Assembly: GCF_017305435.1 (NCBI RefSeq)
Contig: NZ_JAFKIP010000006.1
Coordinates: 124,001 to 188,000 of the forward strand
DNA length: 64,000 nt
Origin: Microbacterium sp.
GTDB taxonomy: Bacteria; Actinomycetota; Actinomycetes; Actinomycetales; Microbacteriaceae
Direction of reading: 5' to 3'
Both the position numbers and the translations under genes were made by a program. This document shows positions 53,577 to 64,000 of the stretch, piece by piece. Each line of letters starts with the position of its first letter. The first letter of the stretch is position 1. The notes below the pieces were generated by a model. The model was not told the origin of the DNA, made no database searches, and was given only the letters and a program-made list of their open reading frames with translations.

Positions 53577-54410
53577 TCAGCCGGCGAGCGCCGCGTAGGC
53601 GTCGGCGGCCTCCGCGACGCGGTGGTTGTAGTCGACGGACGGATTGTAGGCATCGACGGCGCGGATCCATGAGGACGGATCGGTGAGGTCGCCGCCGGCA
53701 CGACAGAGATAGTCCGCCGCCGTCAGCGCCGCGTCGTCGATCGAGTCCACATCCGCTCTCCCGTCGCCGTCGCCGTCACGCCCGTCGCGCGTCCACGTGT
53801 CGGGGATGAACTGCATCGGGCCGAGGGCTCGGTCCCAGATGGGATCACCGTCGAGCACGCCGCCGTCGGTGTCGGCGACGGCGAGCGAGGAGGTGCCGTC
53901 GAGCGGGATGCCGATGATCCGTGGTCGTGCGACGCCGTCGGCCCCGATCGCACCGCCGAAGATCGTCCCGTGCGCCGACTCCACCTCGCCGATCGCCGCC
54001 AGTGTGTTCCAGCCGAGCCCACACCCGGGGTGCACGCGCTGAATCCGCAAGGCGGCGCCGGCGTAGGCGGCGAGAGCGCGCGGTGGGATGCCGGTGCGCG
54101 CCGCGGTCCGCCTCACCCACGCCGGGTCGGCGAGCGCGGAGACCGCCTGCGCGCCAGGCGCTCGTGAGACCACCGGCAACGGCGTCGGGGACGACTCAGT
54201 GGAAGCGTCCGTGCCGGCGGGCACTCCCGTCGCCGAATCGGGTGGGTGCTCGCCGGGCCACGACGCCCACAGCGCACCGGCGAAGGTCGCGAGCGCCGCG
54301 ATGACCAGGACGCCGCTGAGGGCCGCCGCTCGCCGACGCGGCCGACGTGCGGCGACGGCCCCGCCGAGACTCGGATCCGGGACGAGCAGACGGGTGAACT
54401 CGTCGTTCAT
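53577..54410 (-). CDS. MltB-like lytic transglycosylase coupled to the ABC operon
   Basis: A 277-residue membrane-anchored muralytic enzyme: cytoplasmic N-terminus, one helix (about 29-50), then a Thr/Pro-rich linker and an SLT-type catalytic domain. The probable catalytic Glu144 is in AAIGEVESAHG; GPMQFIPDTW and DGRDGDGDGRADVDSIDDAALTAADYLC are typical of MltB-type enzymes that cleave peptidoglycan glycan strands. Its ATG overlaps the metal-type permease stop by 4 bp, so it is translated with the surface-repeat ABC operon. Such coupling suggests wall remodelling linked to that system. Confidence 0.88.
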   Translation of the reverse strand: MNDEFTRLLVPDPSLGGAVAARRPRRRAAALSGVLVIAALATFAGALWASWPGEHPPDSATGVPAGTDASTESSPTPLPVVSRAPGAQAVSALADPAWVRRTAARTGIPPRALAAYAGAALRIQRVHPGCGLGWNTLAAIGEVESAHGTIFGGAIGADGVARPRIIGIPLDGTSSLAVADTDGGVLDGDPIWDRALGPMQFIPDTWTRDGRDGDGDGRADVDSIDDAALTAADYLCRAGGDLTDPSSWIRAVDAYNPSVDYNHRVAEAADAYAALAG

Positions 54411-55273
54411 GCGGCACGTGCCCGTCGCCGTCCGACGCGCCCCCAGAGCCCCTGACGGGGGCCGAGCAGCACGGCGACGAGGAACATCCCCAGCAGCACG
54501 AGCACGATCGTGCCGCCGACCGGCAGGTCCCACGACCACGACACGTACAGCCCCCCGACGGCGGCGACCGCGCCGATGACCGGCCCGAGCGCCATCATGA
54601 CCGCGAGGCGGTCGGTGAGCATCCTCGCGGTCGCGGCGGGTGCGATCAGCAGAGCCAGGACGAGCACGTTGCCGATCGTCTGCACGCTGATGACGACCGC
54701 AAGGGTGACGAGCACGTACAGCGCGAGGTCGATCCAGAACACCGGAACGCCCAGCGCCCGAGCGGACTCGCGGTCGAGGCTCGTCGCGACGAAATCCTTG
54801 TGCAGTGCGAACATCGCGACGAGGACGATGAGCGCCGTGATCGCCACGACCCAGATGTCCTCGTCGCGGATGCCGGTGATGGAGCCGAAGAGGAACTGCT
54901 GCAAGGATCCCGCGTAGCCGGGGGCCTGCGAGATGACGACGATCCCCAGCGCGAAGGCTCCCACGAAGAAGATGCCGATGACCGAGTCCTCCTTCAGTCG
55001 CCGGTTCTGGGAGAACACGGCGACCAGCACGGCCGTGACGACGCCGGCGATCGTCCCGCCGAGGACGAGGTCGCCGGAGAGGACGAAGGCGATCGCGAGG
55101 CCCGGGAAGACGGCGTGCGCCACGGCATCCCCGATGAAGGCCATGCCCCGCAGGACCACGAAGGTGCCCACGACGCCGCAGACCAGGGCGGAGACGACCG
55201 CCACGAGCAGCGCTTTCGGCAGGAACGCCAGCTGCGGGTTGACCAGGTCGGCGAGGAAGTCGAGCGGGTTCAT
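54407..55273 (-). CDS. Anchored-repeat-type ABC transporter permease (ZnuB-like)
   Basis: A 288-residue membrane permease of the zinc/manganese (ABC-3) family with about eight to nine helices. FLPKALLVAVVSALVCGVVGTFVVLRGMAFIGDAVAHAVFPGLAIAF is the family's opening, and SVQTIGNVLVLALLIAPAATARMLTDRL its later conserved block. The ATG 55273 overlaps the ATPase stop; a 566-residue frame through the ATPase gene is rejected. It belongs to the actinobacterial set in which a metal-type transporter is encoded with repeat-containing surface proteins (TIGR03770-type). Confidence 0.92.
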   Translation of the reverse strand: MNPLDFLADLVNPQLAFLPKALLVAVVSALVCGVVGTFVVLRGMAFIGDAVAHAVFPGLAIAFVLSGDLVLGGTIAGVVTAVLVAVFSQNRRLKEDSVIGIFFVGAFALGIVVISQAPGYAGSLQQFLFGSITGIRDEDIWVVAITALIVLVAMFALHKDFVATSLDRESARALGVPVFWIDLALYVLVTLAVVISVQTIGNVLVLALLIAPAATARMLTDRLAVMMALGPVIGAVAAVGGLYVSWSWDLPVGGTIVLVLLGMFLVAVLLGPRQGLWGRVGRRRARAA

Positions 55274-56022
55274 CGCACCGCCTCGAGAATCCGGAGGAAC
55301 GCGCTGTCGGTGCCGACCCCGAAGGTCCGCGCCCAGATCTCCGTCTCGCCGGCGACGACGCGGGGCTCTCCGTCGGCCACGATCGTTCCGGCCAGGAGGG
55401 CGATGCGCCCGCACGTCGCCATCGCGCCGACGATGTCGTGGGTCGTCATCAGCACGGCGCGACCGGATGCCGCGAGCTCCGCGAACAGCTCGGTGAGCAG
55501 CTCCTGCGTCGGCAGGTCGAGGCCCGTGAACGGCTCGTCCAGCAACAGCACCTCGGGGCGGAGGGCGAGGGCCCGGGCGACCAGCACGCGCTGACGCTGC
55601 CCGCCGGAGAGCTGCCCGATCGGGCGCTCGGCCAGAGGGGCGAGCCGCACGAGGCGGAGGGCTTCGCCGACCGCTTCCCAGTGCTGCCGCCCCGGCCGGC
55701 GCACCGGCCCGATGCGGCGCACCAGTCCGGTCATGATCGCGTCGGCGACCGTGATCGGGAAGTCCCACGCGACGTCGTGACGCTGGGGCACGTAGCCCAC
55801 GGGCGAGCGCCCGGGGCGCACCCGCCTGCCGGCCACGTGCACCGATCCGTGCTGCGGCCTCAGCAGGCCCAGCGCCGTGCGCAACAGCGTCGTCTTGCCG
55901 GCGCCGTTGGGGCCGATGAGTCCCACGAGCTCGCCCGCCGACACCGTCAGGGACACTCCGTCCAAGACACGCCGGCCGGCCAGCTCGACGACGACGTCCG
56001 TCAGCTGCAGCGCCGCCGTCAT
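55270..56022 (-). CDS. Anchored-repeat-type ABC transporter ATP-binding protein (ZnuC-like)
   Basis: A 250-residue ABC ATPase with Walker A GPNGAGKT (37-44), Q-loop VPQRHDVAWDFPITV, signature LSGGQRQRVLVARAL, Walker B VLLLDEPFTGLD and switch His in TTHD. The VAWDFPITV stretch is characteristic of Zn/Mn-type importers. It overlaps its neighbours on both sides by 4 bp. It energises the permease at 54407 for uptake of a metal or metal complex, by family analogy. Confidence 0.94.
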   Translation of the reverse strand: MTAALQLTDVVVELAGRRVLDGVSLTVSAGELVGLIGPNGAGKTTLLRTALGLLRPQHGSVHVAGRRVRPGRSPVGYVPQRHDVAWDFPITVADAIMTGLVRRIGPVRRPGRQHWEAVGEALRLVRLAPLAERPIGQLSGGQRQRVLVARALALRPEVLLLDEPFTGLDLPTQELLTELFAELAASGRAVLMTTHDIVGAMATCGRIALLAGTIVADGEPRVVAGETEIWARTFGVGTDSAFLRILEAVR

Positions 56023-57032
56023 GATGCCTCCTTCGTCTCGGCGCCGGGGCGACGGTCAGGTGCAACAGCGGCCGTGGCATCCGCCCGCAGCGCTTCACGG
56101 CGCGCACGTCGGCCGCGGACGATCACGACGACCGCCCCTGCGACGATGGCGACCGCGACCGCGCCGATCGCGCCCGCGAGGATCGGGACGAGCGGATCGT
56201 CGTCGGATGCCGGGGCGGCAGCCGCGGGCGGGCCCTGCTCGGAGCCGGTCCAGGTCGCCCCCAGCGCGGCATCCACCGGCGTCTGCGAACCGACGGCGAA
56301 GCGGATGCGGCGGGTGTCGGAGACCGTGGCGCCGCCCTGCAGCGTCGCCTCGGCGGTCAGCTCGACGAGGTAGACGCCGGGTGCGGTGAAGACCCAGTTC
56401 GCGTGGGTGTGGGTGTTGACGTCCACCCAGACCGATTGCGGTTCGGGGGTCCGCGAGTCCCACAGCACCTGGGGTGCCCCGAACGAGCCGGACTGCAGGT
56501 ACACCGACATCGCCCCCGGCCCCTCGACGGCATCGAGGGTCAGGGTGATGCCGCGGTCGATACGGGCCATGACCTCGGGGTCCTGCGTGTTCCAGCCGAC
56601 CCAGACGACGTCGGGGTTCTGCGTCTGCGGCACGACCCACACCGTCGACCCCGGCTCGGCACCCAGGAAGGCGTACGCGGCGTCGTCCGGGGCCGTCAGC
56701 TGCGCGGCGTCGACGACCTGGAGCACCGTCTCGTCGGGGTAGCGCCACACGCTCGTCAGCGACGGATCGACCTTCGCGACGTCGTCGTGGATGAGGAACG
56801 TCCAGGAACCGTCCACGAAACGCGGCCCCATGTCGACGTGTCCGCTGCTGAGGGTGCGCGCGCCGCGCACGACGGCCTCGTCGGCCGCGATCGTCTGATC
56901 GAGGTTCGGATCATCGCCTTCGGCGGCGGCATGGGCGGCAGGGCCGGCGCTCAGCAGGGCGCCCGCCACCAGCAGACCGGCCAAGACCCGGCGGCGAAGG
57001 GCCGCACGGGTGGAGACGGGGGCGACTCTCAT
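56019..57032 (-). CDS. Surface-anchored repeat protein (choice-of-anchor M)
   Basis: A 337-residue exported protein: signal peptide (about 1-35, ending near AAHAAAEG), one actinobacterial surface-repeat domain, a short linker and a C-terminal helix (about 285-308) followed by RGRRARRE. The repeat begins LSSGHVDMGPRF and ends NTHTHANWVFTAPGVYLVEL, the His-rich TIGR03769-type motif. No LPxTG sortase signal is visible, so the helix itself is the likely anchor. It sits between the substrate-binding protein and ATPase genes with 4-bp overlaps, suggesting it presents substrate to the transporter. Confidence 0.88.
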   Translation of the reverse strand: MRVAPVSTRAALRRRVLAGLLVAGALLSAGPAAHAAAEGDDPNLDQTIAADEAVVRGARTLSSGHVDMGPRFVDGSWTFLIHDDVAKVDPSLTSVWRYPDETVLQVVDAAQLTAPDDAAYAFLGAEPGSTVWVVPQTQNPDVVWVGWNTQDPEVMARIDRGITLTLDAVEGPGAMSVYLQSGSFGAPQVLWDSRTPEPQSVWVDVNTHTHANWVFTAPGVYLVELTAEATLQGGATVSDTRRIRFAVGSQTPVDAALGATWTGSEQGPPAAAAPASDDDPLVPILAGAIGAVAVAIVAGAVVVIVRGRRARREALRADATAAVAPDRRPGAETKEAS

Positions 57033-58648
57033 GGCTGGGGGTCCTCTCGGGGGGCGGTGCCGAGGCAGTCGGCGAGCGAACGCGCGTTGGCACGGATGAG
57101 ATCGAGGTAGGTGCGGACGTGCGCGTCGAAGGTGTCGCCGTAGATCGGGCAGATCGCGACACCTTCGGCGCGAGCGACATCGGCGAGGGTCGTGGAGCGC
57201 GCGGCGAGATTCGGTTCCACGAACACCGCGGGAACGTGCAGCGAGCGGATGGTGTCGGCGAGGCGTCGGCGGTCGGCGAGCGAGGGCTCGGTCGCGGGGT
57301 TCGGCGTCACGAAGCCGGCGATGCGCAGGTCGTAGGCCTGCGCGAGGTAGCCGAACGCGTCGTGGGTCGTCACGAGCCAGCGCCGCTCGGGCGGGATCGC
57401 GGCGATCGTCTCTCGGACGACACGGTCGGTGTCGTCGAGTTCGGCGAGGTAGCGGTCGGTGTTGCGCGCGTACTCCGCGGCCCCGGCGGGATCGACCTCG
57501 ACGAGCGTGTCGCGGATGAGCTGGACGTAGGCCATGACGTTGCGGACGTTCTGCCAGAGGTGCGGATCGATCTCGCCGTGGATGTGCCGGCCGAGCACCG
57601 CCTGGGCGAGCTGATACACCCGCTCCCCCGGGCGTCCGAGGAAGGCGAAGTCCGATCCTCCCGGGATCTCCTCCTGCGCCTTCGCCGGCACCTCGATGAC
57701 GATGCGGGCGGGGTCGAGGTCCTGCTGGGTGTGCTCGCCGCCGCCGTCGGGGTCGTACCGGATGCGCATGCGACGCGTGTCGAGATCGGCGGTCACGTCG
57801 GCGTGGCCTTCATCGAGGACGACGGCGCCGTCGATCGACGCGCGCGAGGGATCGACGCCGACGGCGAAGGTGTACGTCGCGGCGGCGAGGTCGATCCCCG
57901 GCGATGACGGGGTCAGCCGCAGGCTCGCGCGGAGGTCGAGCGTGTAGACGCCCGGCTCGGTGAACGCCCAGGAGAGATGGCTGTGCGCGTCGACGGGCAG
58001 CTCGATCGTGTCCGGACGGGCGCCCCCGAAGCCGTCGGCCGAGTCGATCATGACGTCGGTGTCGCCGAACGTGCCGGTCAGGTACGCGAACGCCTTACCC
58101 GGGCCCGTCATCCCGGTCGCCTCGAGGACGACCTGCGAGGCGCGCGTCGCGCCCCACTGCCGGCCGTCGCCGTGGACGCGTGCGCCGAGCCAGACCGTGT
58201 CGAGCCCGGCATCCTCGACCAGCGGGATGAGCTCCGCCGCGTACTTCACCGACTCCTCGGCGAGCGAGACGTTCGGCGCTCCCGGACGGAGGTTGGCGTC
58301 GAGGGTCTTGATGATGCCGTGCTCCTCCAGCAGCGCATAGTTGCTGAACGCGGCATCCGCGTAGACGACGTTGCGCGCGTCGCGCAGGGTGGGCGCGTAT
58401 TCGTGCGGATCGGCTCCGTCGCGCACGAGGGATGCCACGCGCACCCGCTCTCCCCCCACGTGGCCGACCAGGTCGGCGAGCAGGGGCGTCGTGGTCACGA
58501 CCTGCACGCGATCGTCGGCGTCGCTGAGCGCGGGCGCGGCGGCGCAGCCGGTCACCGTGAGGGCGATGACGACGGCGGCCGCCGCGCATGCCGTGCCACG
58601 GCGCGACGGCGTGGCGCCCGTCCCACTCGGGCGGTCCGTCCCCGTCAT
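57029..58648 (-). CDS. ZnuA-like substrate-binding lipoprotein with nested surface-repeat domain
   Basis: A 539-residue lipoprotein (lipobox VTGC, Cys35). Residues about 48-148 and 345-530 form a cluster A-I metal-binding fold with candidate ligands His82 (DPHEYAPT), His363 (GEIDPHLWQ), Glu478 (VFVEPN) and Asp505 (IYGDTFD). Between them, about 150-345, lies an inserted surface-repeat domain with PVDAHSHLSWAFTEPGVYTLDL and LDEGHADVTADLD. ZnuA/PsaA proteins are usually about 310 residues; the insert explains the excess. Matches the TIGR03772-type anchored-repeat binding protein. The metal is unknown. Confidence 0.9.
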   Translation of the reverse strand: MTGTDRPSGTGATPSRRGTACAAAAVVIALTVTGCAAAPALSDADDRVQVVTTTPLLADLVGHVGGERVRVASLVRDGADPHEYAPTLRDARNVVYADAAFSNYALLEEHGIIKTLDANLRPGAPNVSLAEESVKYAAELIPLVEDAGLDTVWLGARVHGDGRQWGATRASQVVLEATGMTGPGKAFAYLTGTFGDTDVMIDSADGFGGARPDTIELPVDAHSHLSWAFTEPGVYTLDLRASLRLTPSSPGIDLAAATYTFAVGVDPSRASIDGAVVLDEGHADVTADLDTRRMRIRYDPDGGGEHTQQDLDPARIVIEVPAKAQEEIPGGSDFAFLGRPGERVYQLAQAVLGRHIHGEIDPHLWQNVRNVMAYVQLIRDTLVEVDPAGAAEYARNTDRYLAELDDTDRVVRETIAAIPPERRWLVTTHDAFGYLAQAYDLRIAGFVTPNPATEPSLADRRRLADTIRSLHVPAVFVEPNLAARSTTLADVARAEGVAICPIYGDTFDAHVRTYLDLIRANARSLADCLGTAPREDPQP

Positions 58649-61600
58649 GAGGCCGGGCGGCGCCGTCGCACCGAGACCACTCCGGCTCCGACGCCCGCGA
58701 CCAGCAGCAGACCGCCGAGCACACCGAGGAGCACGGGCACGGGGCTCGCGGCGACCTCCTCACGCTCGAGCGGCGCGTCCGGTCCGGCGATGCGTGCCGT
58801 GCCGGCCGATCCGGACGAGCCGGCAGCAGCGGCCGCGGCCTCGGCGGCGGCCTGTTCCGCGGCGCGGCGGGCGGCATCCTCGTCGTCGGCGGTGAGGAGG
58901 GCAGCCGAGATCGCGCCGCAGCCGCTTCCGCCCGCGACGGCCTGCGCCGGGTCGATGTCTCCGACGGCGACGGTCACCGTCGCGGTGTCGCTCGATCGTT
59001 CGCCCGAGGGCAGGCTCACCGTCTGCGTCATCCGCAGCCGGTAGACGCCCTGCTCGCTGAACGCCCAGTTCGCATGCGCGTGAACCCCGAGCGGGATGCG
59101 GTACGACGACCCCGCGCCGTCCAGCACGACGCTCTGCACACCGCCGAAGACTCCCGAGGTGTACACGGTCACCCGGCCGGGGCCGGCGACGGCATCCAGG
59201 GTCCAGTCGACGGGGCCCGCGGCGTTCGCTCCGCTCAGGGCCTCGGTGTTCCAGCCCACCCAGATGAGGTTCGGATTCTGGGTCTGCGGCACCTGCCAGA
59301 CGATCTGCCCCGCCGCGCCGACCGCGCCGTAGCCGGCGGGCAGCTGCTGGCGCGCGGACGGCTTCAGCCAGAGCACGACGTCGGCGGGATCGCGGTACAC
59401 CTTCGCTCCCGACGAGTCGTCGCCGACGAGCGAGCGGAGGCCGCCCCCGACGATGCGGGAGGCATAGTCGATGTGCCCCGACGAGAGGATCGTCGCTCCC
59501 GCGACGCACTGGGCGGCAGCGACCTGGCGGACGGCCGGTGTCGTGTCGCCGACCGGCACCGGAACAGGCACGCCGATCGGCGGCGCCGTGACGACCGTGA
59601 GCGCGTCCCACCCGATCAGCGTTCCCTCGCGCGTCGAGACGACGAGGCGGTGTCCATGGGCCGCGGCGTCGGCCGGCAGCCGCACCTGCACCGCGCCGCT
59701 CGATCCGACACGCGCCCATCCGAGCCAGCGCGGCTCGGCGGCGGCGCCCGCGGCGCCCCACAACCACACCGAGACCCAGTCTCCGGCGCGCTCGCGCGCC
59801 ACCTGCACGGTGACGAGCTCGCCCGCGAGGAATCCGGACCGCCCGTCGAGCACGCTCACGCCGCCCTCGGAGCCCGGGGTGAGGAGCTCCTCGGCGATCG
59901 GATGCCGATCGGGTTCGGTCGGCTCACCCGCGGCGGCGGTGAAACAGCTCGCGGGGTCGGCGGCGCGCACGTCGGCCCGCCCGACGGCGATCGCCAGGGT
60001 GAAGACGGAGCTCAGCGGGCGACCGCCGGCGTGCACCGCCGTGCGCTCGAAGCCGAGGCAGTACAGCCCCTCGGCGCTGAACGCCCAGGTGCCGTGCACG
60101 TGGACGTGCTCGGCGATGCGGACGGTGTCGGCCGCCGTGATGCCGTCACGGGTCGACATGAGGACCCGCGGAACCCCGAGATCGCTCTGGTACAGCGTGA
60201 ACTCGCCCGGTCCGTCGACCCGCTGCAACGACCAGTCGATGCCGGCGGGGACCAGGCCGCGGTCGATGAGCTCGCTCGACCATCCCGGCCAGATCAGTCC
60301 GTCCTGCTGTGTCTCGGTGACCTGCCAGAGGGCTGCGCCCGGTGCCCCCAGGAACCCGAACGCCGGCGCCCCGGGCACGCTCGTCTGCGCCTCCGGCCGG
60401 AGCTGGATGACGGTGCGGGCCGGGTCGCGGTACACCGGCTCACCGTCGGTGTCGTCTTTCACGACGGTCGCGAGAGCCCCGGCATCCAGCCGCGAGGCGA
60501 TGTCGACGTGACCGGCCGTGAGGATCGTCGCGCCGGATGCCGTGAGGCTGCGGTTCGGTACGTCCCAGACGGCGGGCTCGGGGTCGGGCGTGCCCGGGTC
60601 GACGGGCGTCGACCCCTCCCCGCCGGCGGCGCACGGGGTCACGGATGCCGCGTCGACGCCCGCCGCGAGGGTCAGCGTCTTCGTGATGTGGAAGGTCTGA
60701 CCGGCGGCGGTCGTTCCCGACCACGTGAGGGGCACGCAGTAGACGCCGGCGGCGTCGACGGTGTGCGAGCTCGCGAATCCGTAGCGCGGATGCAGGATGG
60801 CTTCACGGCTCTCGCGCTGTGCGCGGGTGTCGAGCGCGGTGGCGAACTGGTCGGAGATACGCCCGGCATTCAGCCAATAGTTCCCGGGACCGCGGACGTC
60901 GCCGAGGTGCAGTGTGACGTCGCCGGTGAGGCCCGGGGCGTCGATCGCGGTGGCGATCCGGTCCGACATCGACCAGGTGTCCCCGCCCCGCGCGAGCGCC
61001 AGCACGGTCTTCTCGGGATCGCGGTAGTCGGCGCCCGAGCCGACGGGGCGGCGGAGTGCCGCGACGACGTCGACGGCACCGCCGCGCTCGACGAGCTCGA
61101 GCCCGCTGGTCGAGGCATTCCCGGCGACGGATGCCGCGCTGACGACCGTCTGCTCGGCCGACACGCTGCCCACCGGCTGCGCCGGGGGCGCCTCGACCGG
61201 TCGCGTGCGCTCGCAGGGCTGTACCTGGGAGAGGTCGACGTCGCCCACGACGACGGTCAGCAGGCCCTGCGCGGAGCGGTCGAGGCCGGTGGTCTCCTCG
61301 TGGATGCGGGTCTCGATCGCGAGGCAATATCGACCCGCCGCCGTGAACGCCCAGTTCTCGTGGATGTGCGTACGCCCGACCGGGAACCACGACGACGTGT
61401 CGGTGCGCGAGTTGAGGTAGTGCCTGGCTCCCGACCACACGACGACGTCACCCGGGCCCTCGAGCTTCGACACCCGCCAGGTCGCGTCGCGATCGGTGTA
61501 CCCCACGGGCAGCTTGAGCATGCTCAGGCCCGGCCAGATCGTCTTGTTCTGGTAATTCGAGCCCTGTGTGAAGCCGTAGTAGGTCGTCCCGGGCACTCCG

Positions 61601-63492
61601 ATGAAGCTGACGTCCTGTATAGCGTCGGGCTCGGGAACGCGGAAGGTCGCGAACTCGCCACGCCCCACCCACACGGCGTCGCGCAGCGGGGTCAGCTCGT
61701 CGCCCTCGCCGTCGCCCGTGGCGATCTGCAGCGAGCCGTCCGGCGTCAGACGCGGGGCCAGGTCGAGGTGGTTCTTCAGGAACCAGGTGACCGAGGGGTC
61801 GAGCTGCTCGCTCCCGCCCGGATCGGTGGGCTGGCCCGGCCCGTCGTCGTCCGACTGCTGCGTGCAGGGAGTGACGGCGGCGGGGTCGATCCCGACGGCG
61901 AACGTGAAGGTGGCATGCGCGCGCGTCGCCTCGGACGCGCCGGCCAGCGTGGTGCCGGCGCGCACGCCGACGCAGTAGACACCGGCGGCCGAGAAGGCGA
62001 ATCCGGTCGCCGGGCTGCCGATGAACTCCTTCTCGTTCGTGTGGAACTCACCGTCCCGCGGGTACACGAACTGCGTCTCGGTGCGCCCGCCCGGGCGACT
62101 GTCCCAGAAGGCGGCGCCCGATCCGTCCCCGCCGAGGCTCCCGTAGGAGTCGGAGTACCGGTACGTGGCGACGTAGCCGTCACCCGTCGTCGAGGCGCCG
62201 GTCATCGTGAACTCGATCCCTTCGGAGGTCTCCGAGAGTTGACCCCAGTCCATGAAGGAGGCGTCGAGATCCAGCACGAGATCGTTCGGCAGCGTCGATC
62301 CCGCCCACGGCGTGTAGACGCCCGCGGAGCGCCACAGCGTCGCACCCGGCGCCGCGATCCGCTCCCAGTCGCGGAAGGTGGGACTCGACGGCGAGAGCCC
62401 GGTCGCGGGCCACTGCGTATCGCGGGCGGGGAGCGAGAAGACGACGTCGGCGGGATCGTGGGCGACGGCGCGACCGCGATCCGATGTGACGACGTCGAGA
62501 CGGATGCCGTCCCGGTCCTCGCGCGTCGACAGCAGCGCGACCCCCGCGTCGATCACGGTAGACCCAGGCGCAGCCTGCTCGGGTTCCGGCGCGTACACCG
62601 GGAACTCCGCGGGTGGCGCGCAGGGCTCGATCGTCGCCGCATGCGCGTCGCCCACGGCGACCGTCAGCGTCAGATCGGCGTTCAGGAACGCGCCGTCTGA
62701 GCGCTGGAAATGCGTGGCCAGGGGAACGCAGACCCGACCCGGCTCGAGGAACGCGAGGCTCACCGGCAGCAGTCCGCCCTCGCCGCCGGTCGTCCGGAAC
62801 CATGGTTGGCCGGCCTGACGCTGCGTCGTACCGCCGAACTCGACACCGCCGGGGAGCAGCGCGGCGACCGGGTCGCCCGGCGCGAGGCCCAGTCGCGTGT
62901 AGATCGGGCCGAGCCAGCCGAACGGGTCGAAGGCCGCGTCCTCGGGGACCGCCGAGGTGTCGACGACGAGCGACAGCGGGTTGGTCTCAGCCCCACCGCC
63001 GGCGGTCCGGTAGACATCGCCGTGCGACGGGTCGATGCGCTCCCACGTGTCGCCTCCGTCCGCGTCGCCGGGCCACGGCTCGGCGTGCGGTACGCGCAGC
63101 ACCGTGGTCGCGGGGTCGAGGCGTGCACCGGACTCGTCGAGGAGGTAGTGGACGAGGCGGTCGTCCTCGATGGCGCTCACGATGCGCACCTCCCCCTCCG
63201 AGATGACAGTGCGTCCGTCTTCGGCGGCCCCCTCGGCGCGAGCCGCCGGCGGCGTCTCGAGGGTTGCCGCGGCATCCGCCTCGTGTACCGGGGGCACGGG
63301 CTGCTCCGGGGTGGTGGTCGGTTCCTCCGTCGGCGTCGGCGTCGCGGCGGGCGTTGCGCTCGGCACGGCTGCGGGGGTCGCGGTGGCAACGGGATCCACG
63401 GCGTCGGGCTCGGCCGCCTGCACGGGGGCCAGCGAAACCAGCACGAGGGCGGCGGCCAGCACGGACGCGGTGAGGGAGGGAAGCGTGCGCAT
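58645..63492 (-). CDS. 1615-residue surface protein with six anchored-repeat domains
   Basis: A very large exported protein (TIGR03773-like): signal peptide (about 1-27, ending VQAAEP), a Pro/Thr linker (to about 62), then six degenerate repeat domains, a Cys-containing stretch and a C-terminal helix (PVPVLLGVLGGLLLVAGVGAGVV) with RRRR after it. The best repeats start ILTAGHVDIASRL and ILSSGHIDYASRI and end in HVHVHGTWAFSAEGLYCL or GVHAHANWAFSEQGVYRL. Repeats 1-5 have one Cys in a G-x-Y/V-C motif and one after the repeat, probably disulfides. No LPxTG motif. First gene of the operon; weak ribosome-binding site. Function unknown. Confidence 0.88.
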   Translation of the reverse strand: MRTLPSLTASVLAAALVLVSLAPVQAAEPDAVDPVATATPAAVPSATPAATPTPTEEPTTTPEQPVPPVHEADAAATLETPPAARAEGAAEDGRTVISEGEVRIVSAIEDDRLVHYLLDESGARLDPATTVLRVPHAEPWPGDADGGDTWERIDPSHGDVYRTAGGGAETNPLSLVVDTSAVPEDAAFDPFGWLGPIYTRLGLAPGDPVAALLPGGVEFGGTTQRQAGQPWFRTTGGEGGLLPVSLAFLEPGRVCVPLATHFQRSDGAFLNADLTLTVAVGDAHAATIEPCAPPAEFPVYAPEPEQAAPGSTVIDAGVALLSTREDRDGIRLDVVTSDRGRAVAHDPADVVFSLPARDTQWPATGLSPSSPTFRDWERIAAPGATLWRSAGVYTPWAGSTLPNDLVLDLDASFMDWGQLSETSEGIEFTMTGASTTGDGYVATYRYSDSYGSLGGDGSGAAFWDSRPGGRTETQFVYPRDGEFHTNEKEFIGSPATGFAFSAAGVYCVGVRAGTTLAGASEATRAHATFTFAVGIDPAAVTPCTQQSDDDGPGQPTDPGGSEQLDPSVTWFLKNHLDLAPRLTPDGSLQIATGDGEGDELTPLRDAVWVGRGEFATFRVPEPDAIQDVSFIGVPGTTYYGFTQGSNYQNKTIWPGLSMLKLPVGYTDRDATWRVSKLEGPGDVVVWSGARHYLNSRTDTSSWFPVGRTHIHENWAFTAAGRYCLAIETRIHEETTGLDRSAQGLLTVVVGDVDLSQVQPCERTRPVEAPPAQPVGSVSAEQTVVSAASVAGNASTSGLELVERGGAVDVVAALRRPVGSGADYRDPEKTVLALARGGDTWSMSDRIATAIDAPGLTGDVTLHLGDVRGPGNYWLNAGRISDQFATALDTRAQRESREAILHPRYGFASSHTVDAAGVYCVPLTWSGTTAAGQTFHITKTLTLAAGVDAASVTPCAAGGEGSTPVDPGTPDPEPAVWDVPNRSLTASGATILTAGHVDIASRLDAGALATVVKDDTDGEPVYRDPARTVIQLRPEAQTSVPGAPAFGFLGAPGAALWQVTETQQDGLIWPGWSSELIDRGLVPAGIDWSLQRVDGPGEFTLYQSDLGVPRVLMSTRDGITAADTVRIAEHVHVHGTWAFSAEGLYCLGFERTAVHAGGRPLSSVFTLAIAVGRADVRAADPASCFTAAAGEPTEPDRHPIAEELLTPGSEGGVSVLDGRSGFLAGELVTVQVARERAGDWVSVWLWGAAGAAAEPRWLGWARVGSSGAVQVRLPADAAAHGHRLVVSTREGTLIGWDALTVVTAPPIGVPVPVPVGDTTPAVRQVAAAQCVAGATILSSGHIDYASRIVGGGLRSLVGDDSSGAKVYRDPADVVLWLKPSARQQLPAGYGAVGAAGQIVWQVPQTQNPNLIWVGWNTEALSGANAAGPVDWTLDAVAGPGRVTVYTSGVFGGVQSVVLDGAGSSYRIPLGVHAHANWAFSEQGVYRLRMTQTVSLPSGERSSDTATVTVAVGDIDPAQAVAGGSGCGAISAALLTADDEDAARRAAEQAAAEAAAAAAGSSGSAGTARIAGPDAPLEREEVAASPVPVLLGVLGGLLLVAGVGAGVVSVRRRRPAS

Positions 63493-63519: not shown

Positions 63520-63557
63520 GCGGGTGGGGCCGGCGCGATCGCCCCGGCCCCACCCGC
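63520..63557 (-). terminator. 14-bp perfect hairpin between the two surface-protein genes
   Basis: Positions 63520-63533 pair perfectly with 63544-63557 around a 10-nt loop. It follows the stop of the partial gene by 8 bp and precedes the 1615-residue protein's start by 27 bp. No T-run follows, so it may attenuate rather than terminate, because little room remains for a separate promoter. Confidence 0.6.
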
Positions 63558-63564
63558 GACGGGA

Positions 63565-64000
63565 TCAGAACGTGAACCGGTAGGTGGTCGACGCGGAGAA
63601 GCCGCCGCTGCCCGGGACGGAGACCGAGACGCCGATGTTCGCGGCGCTGGAGGTGCCCGAGCCCGAGAACGTCCAGGTCAGGTGCTCGTGCCACGTCGCA
63701 CCCGCGGCAACCGACGGGGTGGTCCACGTCACCGTGCGGGCTGCGGCTGTCGCGGGGCTGTTGACGACGGTGAGCGTCCCGTTCGAGATGTTCAGGCCGA
63801 CGTTCGCCGGGATGCGGAAGGTGAAGGTCGCCGCGCGTGCGCCGGACGCGGTGTTCTGGAAGCGGATGCCGCCGCCGGCGACCGGCGTGGTCGCCGTCTC
63901 CGACTCGTCGATGACCTTGCCGCTGCCGACGGCGAACCAGGCGTCCGGCGACGTGACCGTGTCCCAGGACTCGTTCTCGTGGTCGTAGCTCTGCAGGCGA
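63565..64000 (-). CDS. 3' end of an exported beta-rich protein (partial)
   Basis: An open frame enters from the right edge and ends at TGA (63567-63565), giving about 144 C-terminal residues. The translated tail includes WFAVGSGKVIDESETATTPV, AATFTFRIPANVGLNISNG and TVTWTTPSVAAGATWHEH, then ends STTYRFTF. It is Ser/Thr/Gly-rich with alternating hydrophobics, like an exported beta-sandwich domain. No membrane anchor is visible at its C-terminus. It lies 72 bp upstream of the six-repeat protein gene and may be part of the same operon. The start and family are outside the window. Confidence 0.65.
   Translation of the reverse strand, partial: RLQSYDHENESWDTVTSPDAWFAVGSGKVIDESETATTPVAGGGIRFQNTASGARAATFTFRIPANVGLNISNGTLTVVNSPATAAARTVTWTTPSVAAGATWHEHLTWTFSGSGTSSAANIGVSVSVPGSGGFSASTTYRFTF

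What the first reader, a model, noticed from the sequence alone, without database searches (positions are those of the whole stretch)
53577..63492. Anchored-repeat ABC operon with a translationally coupled lytic transglycosylase
Six genes (six-repeat surface protein, repeat-bearing binding protein, single-repeat surface protein, ATPase, permease, MltB-like enzyme) are linked by five consecutive 4-bp overlaps (58645-58648, 57029-57032, 56019-56022, 55270-55273, 54407-54410). Surface-repeat proteins with a Zn/Mn-type transporter are a known but functionally undefined actinobacterial set. A muralytic enzyme locked into the same translational chain is what I would look at first: it suggests the system threads long proteins through, or captures substrate in, the cell wall. 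The substrate might be a metal, a metallophore or haem.
Basis: partly seen in the sequence, partly recalled or inferred. Interest (0 to 1): 0.75.

Follow-up and report, generated by a model that had tools for sequence, protein, structure and literature searches.

The report
Zinc-capture operon with wall-cutting enzyme
An actinobacterium carries a zinc-scavenging gene set, of a kind recently studied in the diphtheria bacterium, to which a cell-wall-cutting enzyme is tightly joined; the same joining recurs in other actinobacteria and may help explain how such long proteins reach or lodge in the cell wall.

Summary
The six genes and five ATGA overlaps are as described. A, B, D and E belong to NCBI's anchored-repeat ABC families and C to the same repeat type, the kind published in 2025 as the zinc system znuAECB/znuFG of Corynebacterium diphtheriae (PMC12445094), so the substrate is most likely zinc. 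New here: a seventh, first gene reaches past the window end, with a Zur-box-like site 467 bases beyond it and a strong hairpin behind the gene; the binding protein's inserted repeat is circularly permuted. The transglycosylase recurs: near the permease in 26 of 101 judged operons, directly behind it in 17, a start codon overlapping by 4 bp in 14. Where directly coupled, the long surface protein lacks a sortase signal in 10 of 10 loci of a first set and 5 of 6 of a second; counting distal copies too, the second set shows no association. I propose a Zur-controlled zinc relay whose transglycosylase opens wall glycan for sortase-less proteins. The zinc part is well supported; the enzyme's role is inference, and zinc-sparing wall maintenance is a serious rival.

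The parts
58645..63492 (-). A: 1615-aa secreted surface protein, six choice-of-anchor-M-type domains (three with HxD/HxH), C-terminal hydrophobic segment with RRRR tail, no sortase motif; TIGR03773
61255..61776 (-). M domain 3 of A with HLD...HIH
59983..60522 (-). M domain 5 of A with HVD...HVH
58963..59487 (-). M domain 6 of A with HID...HAH
57029..58648 (-). B: zinc-type substrate-binding protein (TIGR03772) with H82/H363/H429/D505 site and an inserted, circularly permuted M domain
57599..58225 (-). permuted M domain inside B: profile 71-184 at 57860-58225, then profile 1-73 at 57599-57820 (the latter match is below the family cut-off)
56019..57032 (-). C: single M domain, C-terminal transmembrane helix; counterpart of ZnuE
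55270..56022 (-). D: ABC ATPase, TIGR03771
54407..55273 (-). E: ABC-3 permease, TIGR03770
53577..54410 (-). F: lytic transglycosylase (SLT_2), N-terminal hydrophobic anchor (by eye), E144 / GPMQF / AYN motifs (motif roles recalled)
63565..64000 (-). 3' part of the extra first gene G0 (201 aa, secreted, no C-terminal anchor by eye, WHEHLTWTF); continues beyond the window to about 64170
63520..63557 (-). GC-rich hairpin between G0 and A (-45.5 kcal/mol for the 88-nt stretch, z -4.6); a stable hairpin of other sequence lies at this place in 6 of 6 compared relatives (no shuffle control for those)

Best explanation
This is a Zur-controlled zinc-capture and uptake operon. Seen in the sequence: a Zur-box-like site stands before a first gene for a small secreted protein without a C-terminal anchor, then come a long membrane-tailed protein with three HxD/HxH domains, a zinc-type binding protein that itself holds a permuted HxD/HxH domain, a single-domain membrane protein, the ATPase, the permease and a membrane-anchored lytic transglycosylase. 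Inferred: under zinc shortage the repeat proteins bind zinc outside, A reaches into or through the wall because it is fixed in the membrane at its C terminus and is several domains long, and zinc passes from repeat to repeat to C and the permuted domain of B and so to the permease. Inferred: the transglycosylase cuts glycan strands locally so that the bulky, sortase-less A protein can be pushed through or lodged in the wall; coupling to the permease keeps its dose matched.
For: Family membership and order. Published zinc/Zur repression of the counterpart cluster, zinc binding in vitro, growth role of ZnuE and wall location of ZnuF/G (PMC6711530 section 5; PMC12445094 abstract, sections 5, 10, 12 and passages). 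Zur-box-like sites within 1200 nt before to 300 nt after the opening of the first operon ORF in 31 of 43 loci versus 1 of 43 for the control pattern; outside these stretches 22 sites (3 control) in 737,750 bases. In the own genome 4 sites against 1 for the reversed control, one of the four 989 nt before A, and two FUR-family genes. Binding-protein site H82 33/34, H363 34/34, H429 33/34, D505 33/34, and HxH/HxD of the inserted domain 34/34. F directly behind the permease in 17 of 101 judged operons, with a start codon overlapping by 4 bp in 14, by 8 bp in 2, after a gap in 1. Direct-F loci have a sortase-less A in 10 of 10 (first set, against 6 of 27 without direct F) and 5 of 6 (second set, against 12 of 43).
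Against: 75 of 101 judged operons have no F nearby, and the C. diphtheriae cluster as described has none while its ZnuF still reaches the wall (PMC12445094). That paper could not show conclusively that the HxD/HxH residues themselves bind zinc in vitro. Sortase-less A proteins occur without F (4 first-set and 12 second-set loci). If distal F genes are counted, the second set shows no association (5 of 17 against 7 of 32, p 0.73). On the binding-protein tree only 4 supported independent pairs exist and the sign test cannot reach significance. The tail classes come from my own script, made after the pattern was seen, and depend on thresholds: a looser version gave F in 14 of 25 loci with a sortase-less A against 12 of 77. 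Five of the 12 first-set F loci with a sortase-less A also carry a sortase-signal repeat protein (L051, L052, L053, L114, L115). The G0 protein has no significant profile match to the M domain. 12 of 43 loci have no Zur-box-like site in the stretch searched. No expression or biochemical data exist for this organism.
Confidence: 0.5

Rival explanations
1. Zinc-sparing wall maintenance: F is a zinc-independent wall hydrolase that Zur switches on when zinc-dependent amidases and endopeptidases fail, like ShyB of Vibrio cholerae; it has no physical tie to the surface proteins.
For: F sits in a unit with a Zur-box-like site; Zur binds the shyB promoter and ShyB is an EDTA-resistant endopeptidase (PMC6381278, abstract and section headings seen); inactivating a transglycosylase rescued a zinc-starved zigA mutant of A. 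baumannii (PMC11834433, abstract seen); the own genome has a second, unlinked F relative (57% identity).
Against: It does not predict why direct-F operons have sortase-less A proteins, nor placement inside this one operon rather than alone behind a Zur box; the unlinked paralogue is also zinc-independent by family, so replacing it saves no zinc (inference).
Confidence: 0.3
2. Hitchhiking: F is an ordinary transglycosylase gene that was captured by the operon once or a few times and has no special role in it.
For: Patchy presence (26 of 101 judged loci); F relatives occur unlinked (65 of 150 family genomes have a relative at E<=1e-30); a single origin of 17 linked copies is not rejected (p-AU 0.142).
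Against: Direct linkage in five family codes plus Blastococcus, with a 4-bp overlap in 14 of 17; F also occurs one gene further on, behind an extra secreted gene with a hydrophobic C-terminal segment (by eye), in 9 loci; the tree as drawn needs 8 changes of the linked state.
Confidence: 0.15
3. The substrate is a metallophore, haem or manganese rather than free zinc.
For: The solved structures closest to B are iron/manganese binders YfeA and MntA; the FecCD family also matches E.
Against: At the third ligand position YfeA and MntA have Glu where B has His; the next solved relative 5w56 has His (ligand roles recalled, three-His site of ZnuA in PMC12445094); Zur-box-like sites; counterpart proteins bind zinc (PMC12445094).
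Confidence: 0.05

Closest known systems
C. diphtheriae znuAECB / znuFG cluster (PMC12445094, PMC6711530)
   Same: Same transporter, same single-repeat membrane protein, HxD/HxH repeat proteins, reversed motif in the binding protein, Zur control there, a sortase-less long surface protein (ZnuF).
   Different: No transglycosylase is described there (the word occurs 0 times in the main text of PMC12445094); A here is longer (six M-type domains), lies upstream in one overlap chain, and an extra secreted first gene and an intercistronic hairpin precede it.
NCBI anchored-repeat ABC families TIGR03769-TIGR03773 / choice-of-anchor M NF038134
   Same: A, B, D and E exceed the cut-offs of TIGR03773, TIGR03772, TIGR03771 and TIGR03770; A, B and C exceed those of NF038134 and TIGR03769.
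   Different: None of these models covers F or the first gene G0.
Streptococcal Pht proteins with AdcAII
   Same: Surface zinc-binding repeats proposed to feed a zinc binding protein; no sortase needed (comparison made in the discussion of PMC12445094).
   Different: Different motif (HxxHxH); no sequence relation tested here.
V. cholerae ShyB, Zur-regulated endopeptidase (PMC6381278)
   Same: Cell wall hydrolase in a Zur regulon.
   Different: Endopeptidase of a Gram-negative bacterium; I saw abstract and headings only.

Membership tests
Anchored-repeat zinc ABC transporter (znuAECB kind) | TIGR03770, TIGR03771, TIGR03772 over curated cut-off in one operon with TIGR03773/M-domain proteins | tested here: met
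Anchored-repeat zinc ABC transporter (znuAECB kind) | HxD/HxH motif in the single-repeat membrane protein, reversed in the binding protein | tested here: met
   present in the window; HxH in 28 of 28 C and 34 of 34 B proteins aligned, HxD in 27 of 28 (one gap) and 34 of 34
Anchored-repeat zinc ABC transporter (znuAECB kind) | Zur control | tested here: inconclusive
   Zur-box-like site in front of the unit and in 31 of 43 relatives; no binding or expression data
Anchored-repeat zinc ABC transporter (znuAECB kind) | zinc uptake | not testable with these tools
   needs transport or growth assay
MltB-type lytic transglycosylase | SLT_2 match over the gathering score | tested here: met
   32.7 bits against 24.3
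MltB-type lytic transglycosylase | TIGR02283 MltB_2 over its curated cut-off | tested here: not met
   36.7 bits against 248.45; so not a TIGR02283 member
MltB-type lytic transglycosylase | catalytic Glu and GxMQ-type motif conserved | tested here: met
   E144, G197, P198, Q200, F201, Y255, N256 invariant in 12 of 12 linked relatives; roles recalled
Sortase-anchored surface protein | LPxTG-like motif before the C-terminal hydrophobic segment of A | tested here: not met

The most novel reading that the evidence does not exclude
F is the dedicated partner that attaches sortase-less A-type (ZnuF-type) proteins to the wall, not merely a hole-maker: the transglycosylase reaction could end on a protein group instead of on the MurNAc C6 hydroxyl, giving a covalent glycan-protein link that would explain the reported sortase-independent, detergent-resistant wall attachment of ZnuF.
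Probability: 0.05. Interest if true: 0.9.

Novelty: new variant of a known kind. Interest (0 to 1): 0.5.

Why it matters
How ZnuF gets into the wall without any of six sortases is stated as open in PMC12445094. A recurrent, tightly coupled transglycosylase beside sortase-less relatives gives a gene to delete and a clear readout. It would also, as far as I know, extend Zur control of wall hydrolases from the Gram-negative cases of PMC6381278 to actinobacteria.

Tried and rejected

Rows dropped: L060 (permease below cut-off) from all counts; L113, L235 and L293 as not judgeable for F (contig ends, or no permease seen). Among the 101 judged, L093, L249 and L263 have under 2 kb behind the permease, so a distal F could be missed there, and L058 has the permease and ATPase but no binding protein. 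In one search, 7 first-set and 11 second-set loci without a visible A protein or with too short a contig were left out; L113 was left out, and L058 has no B for it. Of the 61 order genomes with a match, 52 were fetched, 5 were already held and 4 (G803, G851, G926, G1020) were left out.
Full report
Observation. On the minus strand the six ORFs are intact at the stated coordinates and each of the five junctions reads ATGA. A, B, D and E exceed the curated cut-offs of TIGR03773, TIGR03772, TIGR03771 and TIGR03770; C is a choice-of-anchor M protein. F matches Pfam SLT_2 above its gathering score and MltB-type solved enzymes weakly (7qvd, E 1.5e-5), but is far below the TIGR02283 cut-off. By eye it has an N-terminal hydrophobic anchor. 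Its E144, GPMQF and AYN signatures are invariant or nearly so in 12 operon-linked relatives (meaning of the signatures recalled).

Repeats. NCBIfam sees three M domains in A. Profile-profile comparison with A orthologues supports three more: d2 (probability 98), d4 (97, over 88 columns) and d1 against d2 (99; against the M profile itself only 65). Only domains 3, 5 and 6 have HxD...HxH. A ends in a hydrophobic segment and RRRR tail without a sortase motif. In B the M profile matches as 73-184 (71-184) followed by 1-73, and the predicted strands of B (mean pLDDT 85.1) follow those of C (85.5), as I read the two lists, in the order second half then first half. So the 'reverse order' motif reported for ZnuA in PMC12445094 (section 5) is best read as a circularly permuted M domain set into the binding protein. 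I could not measure distances in the models.

What is known. led to PMC6711530 (abstract and section 5 with its sub-sections read) and PMC12445094 (abstract, sections 5, 10, 12 and passages read). There the counterpart cluster is zinc and Zur repressed, ZnuE is needed for full growth in low zinc, ZnuE, ZnuF and ZnuG bind zinc in vitro (the part played by the motif residues in binding was not settled), and ZnuF is firmly in the wall although it lacks a sortase signal and needs none of six sortases. So the core of this finding is known. A transglycosylase is not mentioned in the main text of PMC12445094. Among the papers listed (5 of 5; 5 of 5; 10 of 56 listed; none found; 10 of 20 listed), no title or abstract start joins this system with a transglycosylase; that is a statement about those listings in one open-licence library.

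Zinc. In 34 aligned B proteins the ZnuA-type site is H82 (33), H363 (34), H429 (33), D505 (33), and the permuted motif is H222, H224, H282, D284 in all 34; in 28 C proteins HxD is present in 27 (one row has a gap) and HxH in 28. YfeA and MntA, closest by sequence among solved structures, have Glu at the third ligand position; the next, 5w56, has His (ligand roles recalled).

Regulation and an extra first gene. The pattern TGANAAYNRTTNTCA (built from recalled actinobacterial Zur boxes) with at most one mismatch occurs at 31 of 43 operon starts, the reversed control at 1 of 43; elsewhere in the same loci 22 sites (3 control) lie in 737,750 bases. The own genome has 4 sites against 1 control site: one before this unit, two on contig C3 by metal-type ABC genes, near a FUR-family gene, and one at C4:334811 that I did not follow. 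The window itself has none. The site for this unit is at C4:188467-188481, 467 bases past the window end and 989 nt before A. Between them lies G0, 201 aa, with a signal peptide and no C-terminal anchor by eye, and WHEHLTWTF; relatives at the same place in L117, L118 and L119 score 181-202 bits. In L050, L104 and L105 the first gene behind the site also codes for a small secreted protein without an evident anchor, with HxD and HxH, but homology of G0 with the M domain is not significant. In all seven loci a stable hairpin of differing sequence follows the stop codon of this first gene (window: -45.5 kcal/mol, z -4.6; no shuffle control for the other six). I read it as a device that makes more first-gene protein than A, which is inference.

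Is F part of it? TIGR03772 is uncommon: 27 of 394 class genomes, 9 of 149 genus genomes, 61 of 396 order genomes, 11 of 245 genomes of G175's family; these samples overlap. I examined the window, 43 loci and 60 further loci: 104, of which 101 could be judged. F is directly behind the permease in 17 (10 in the first set; 7 in the second) and one gene further on in 9 (L051, L107, L114, L247, L255, L256, L257, L259, L260). A start codon overlapping the permease stop by 4 bases is available in 14 of 17, by 8 in 2, and 22 bases behind it in 1. The 17 fall in family codes f1, f8, f34, f49 and f59. Named cases found through F itself: directly coupled in Nocardioides sp. SYSU D00065 and Blastococcus haudaquaticus, behind an extra gene in two Gulosibacter. 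F relatives are common elsewhere (65 of 150 family genomes), but with one to three copies per genome in that list, direct neighbourhood in 17 of 101 is far beyond chance (estimate, not computed).

Which partner? In the first set I noticed that F goes with a long surface protein whose tail has no sortase motif: 12 of 16 loci with such a protein have F, 1 of 26 without (Fisher p 1.9e-6, relatedness ignored). Applied to the second set, the rule 'any F nearby' failed (5 of 17 against 7 of 32, p 0.73), because six loci of one genus code keep F behind another secreted gene with a hydrophobic tail and have a sortase-type A. The narrower rule for directly coupled F held: 10 of 10 in the first set (p 2.3e-5), 5 of 6 in the second (p 0.015); the exception, L290, has an apparently disrupted A frame. 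The narrower rule was put to the second set after the wider one had failed. The tree-based pair test has too few pairs. So this is a lead, not a proven rule.

Mechanism. Steps with sequence or published evidence: zinc-type transporter, zinc-binding repeat type, Zur-like site, coupled transglycosylase. Inferred: a relay of zinc from outer repeats to the binding protein; local glycan cutting for the sortase-less protein. The strongest rival is zinc-sparing wall maintenance (ShyB-like, PMC6381278, abstract and headings seen).

Verdict. Observation confirmed, interpretation partly supported, core already known, the coupled transglycosylase with sortase-less partner a new variant worth a deletion experiment.

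Noticed in passing
L059:11158-13920: In a 1.4-Mb family member the permease reading frame continues into an M-domain protein (920 aa open frame, E 312 and A 153 bits): a possible permease-repeat fusion.
   Followed up: no
window 63520-63557 and L117, L118, L119, L050, L104, L105: A stable hairpin of different sequence but same place stands between the first gene and A in all seven loci.
   Followed up: partly
L117, L118: A orthologues are open, stop to stop, over 2372 and 2349 codons, longer than in the window.
   Followed up: no
G000:C4:53949-54551 (L016): Unlinked F paralogue, 57% identity, between an aspartokinase-like and a phosphate-type ABC ATPase gene (names by eye).
   Followed up: partly
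G000:C3:93000-101600 (L049): A second metal-type ABC gene group with a FUR-family regulator and two Zur-box-like sites.
   Followed up: partly
L107, L247, L255, L256, L257, L259, L260: Loci of one genus code (g93) keep a different secreted gene with a hydrophobic tail overlapping the permease, with F behind it.
   Followed up: partly
L290: The long surface protein gene appears frame-disrupted beside an open F frame.
   Followed up: no
G803: Three TIGR03772 matches on three short contigs of one assembly.
   Followed up: no
G000:C4:334811-334825: A fourth Zur-box-like site in the own genome, neighbours not examined.
   Followed up: no
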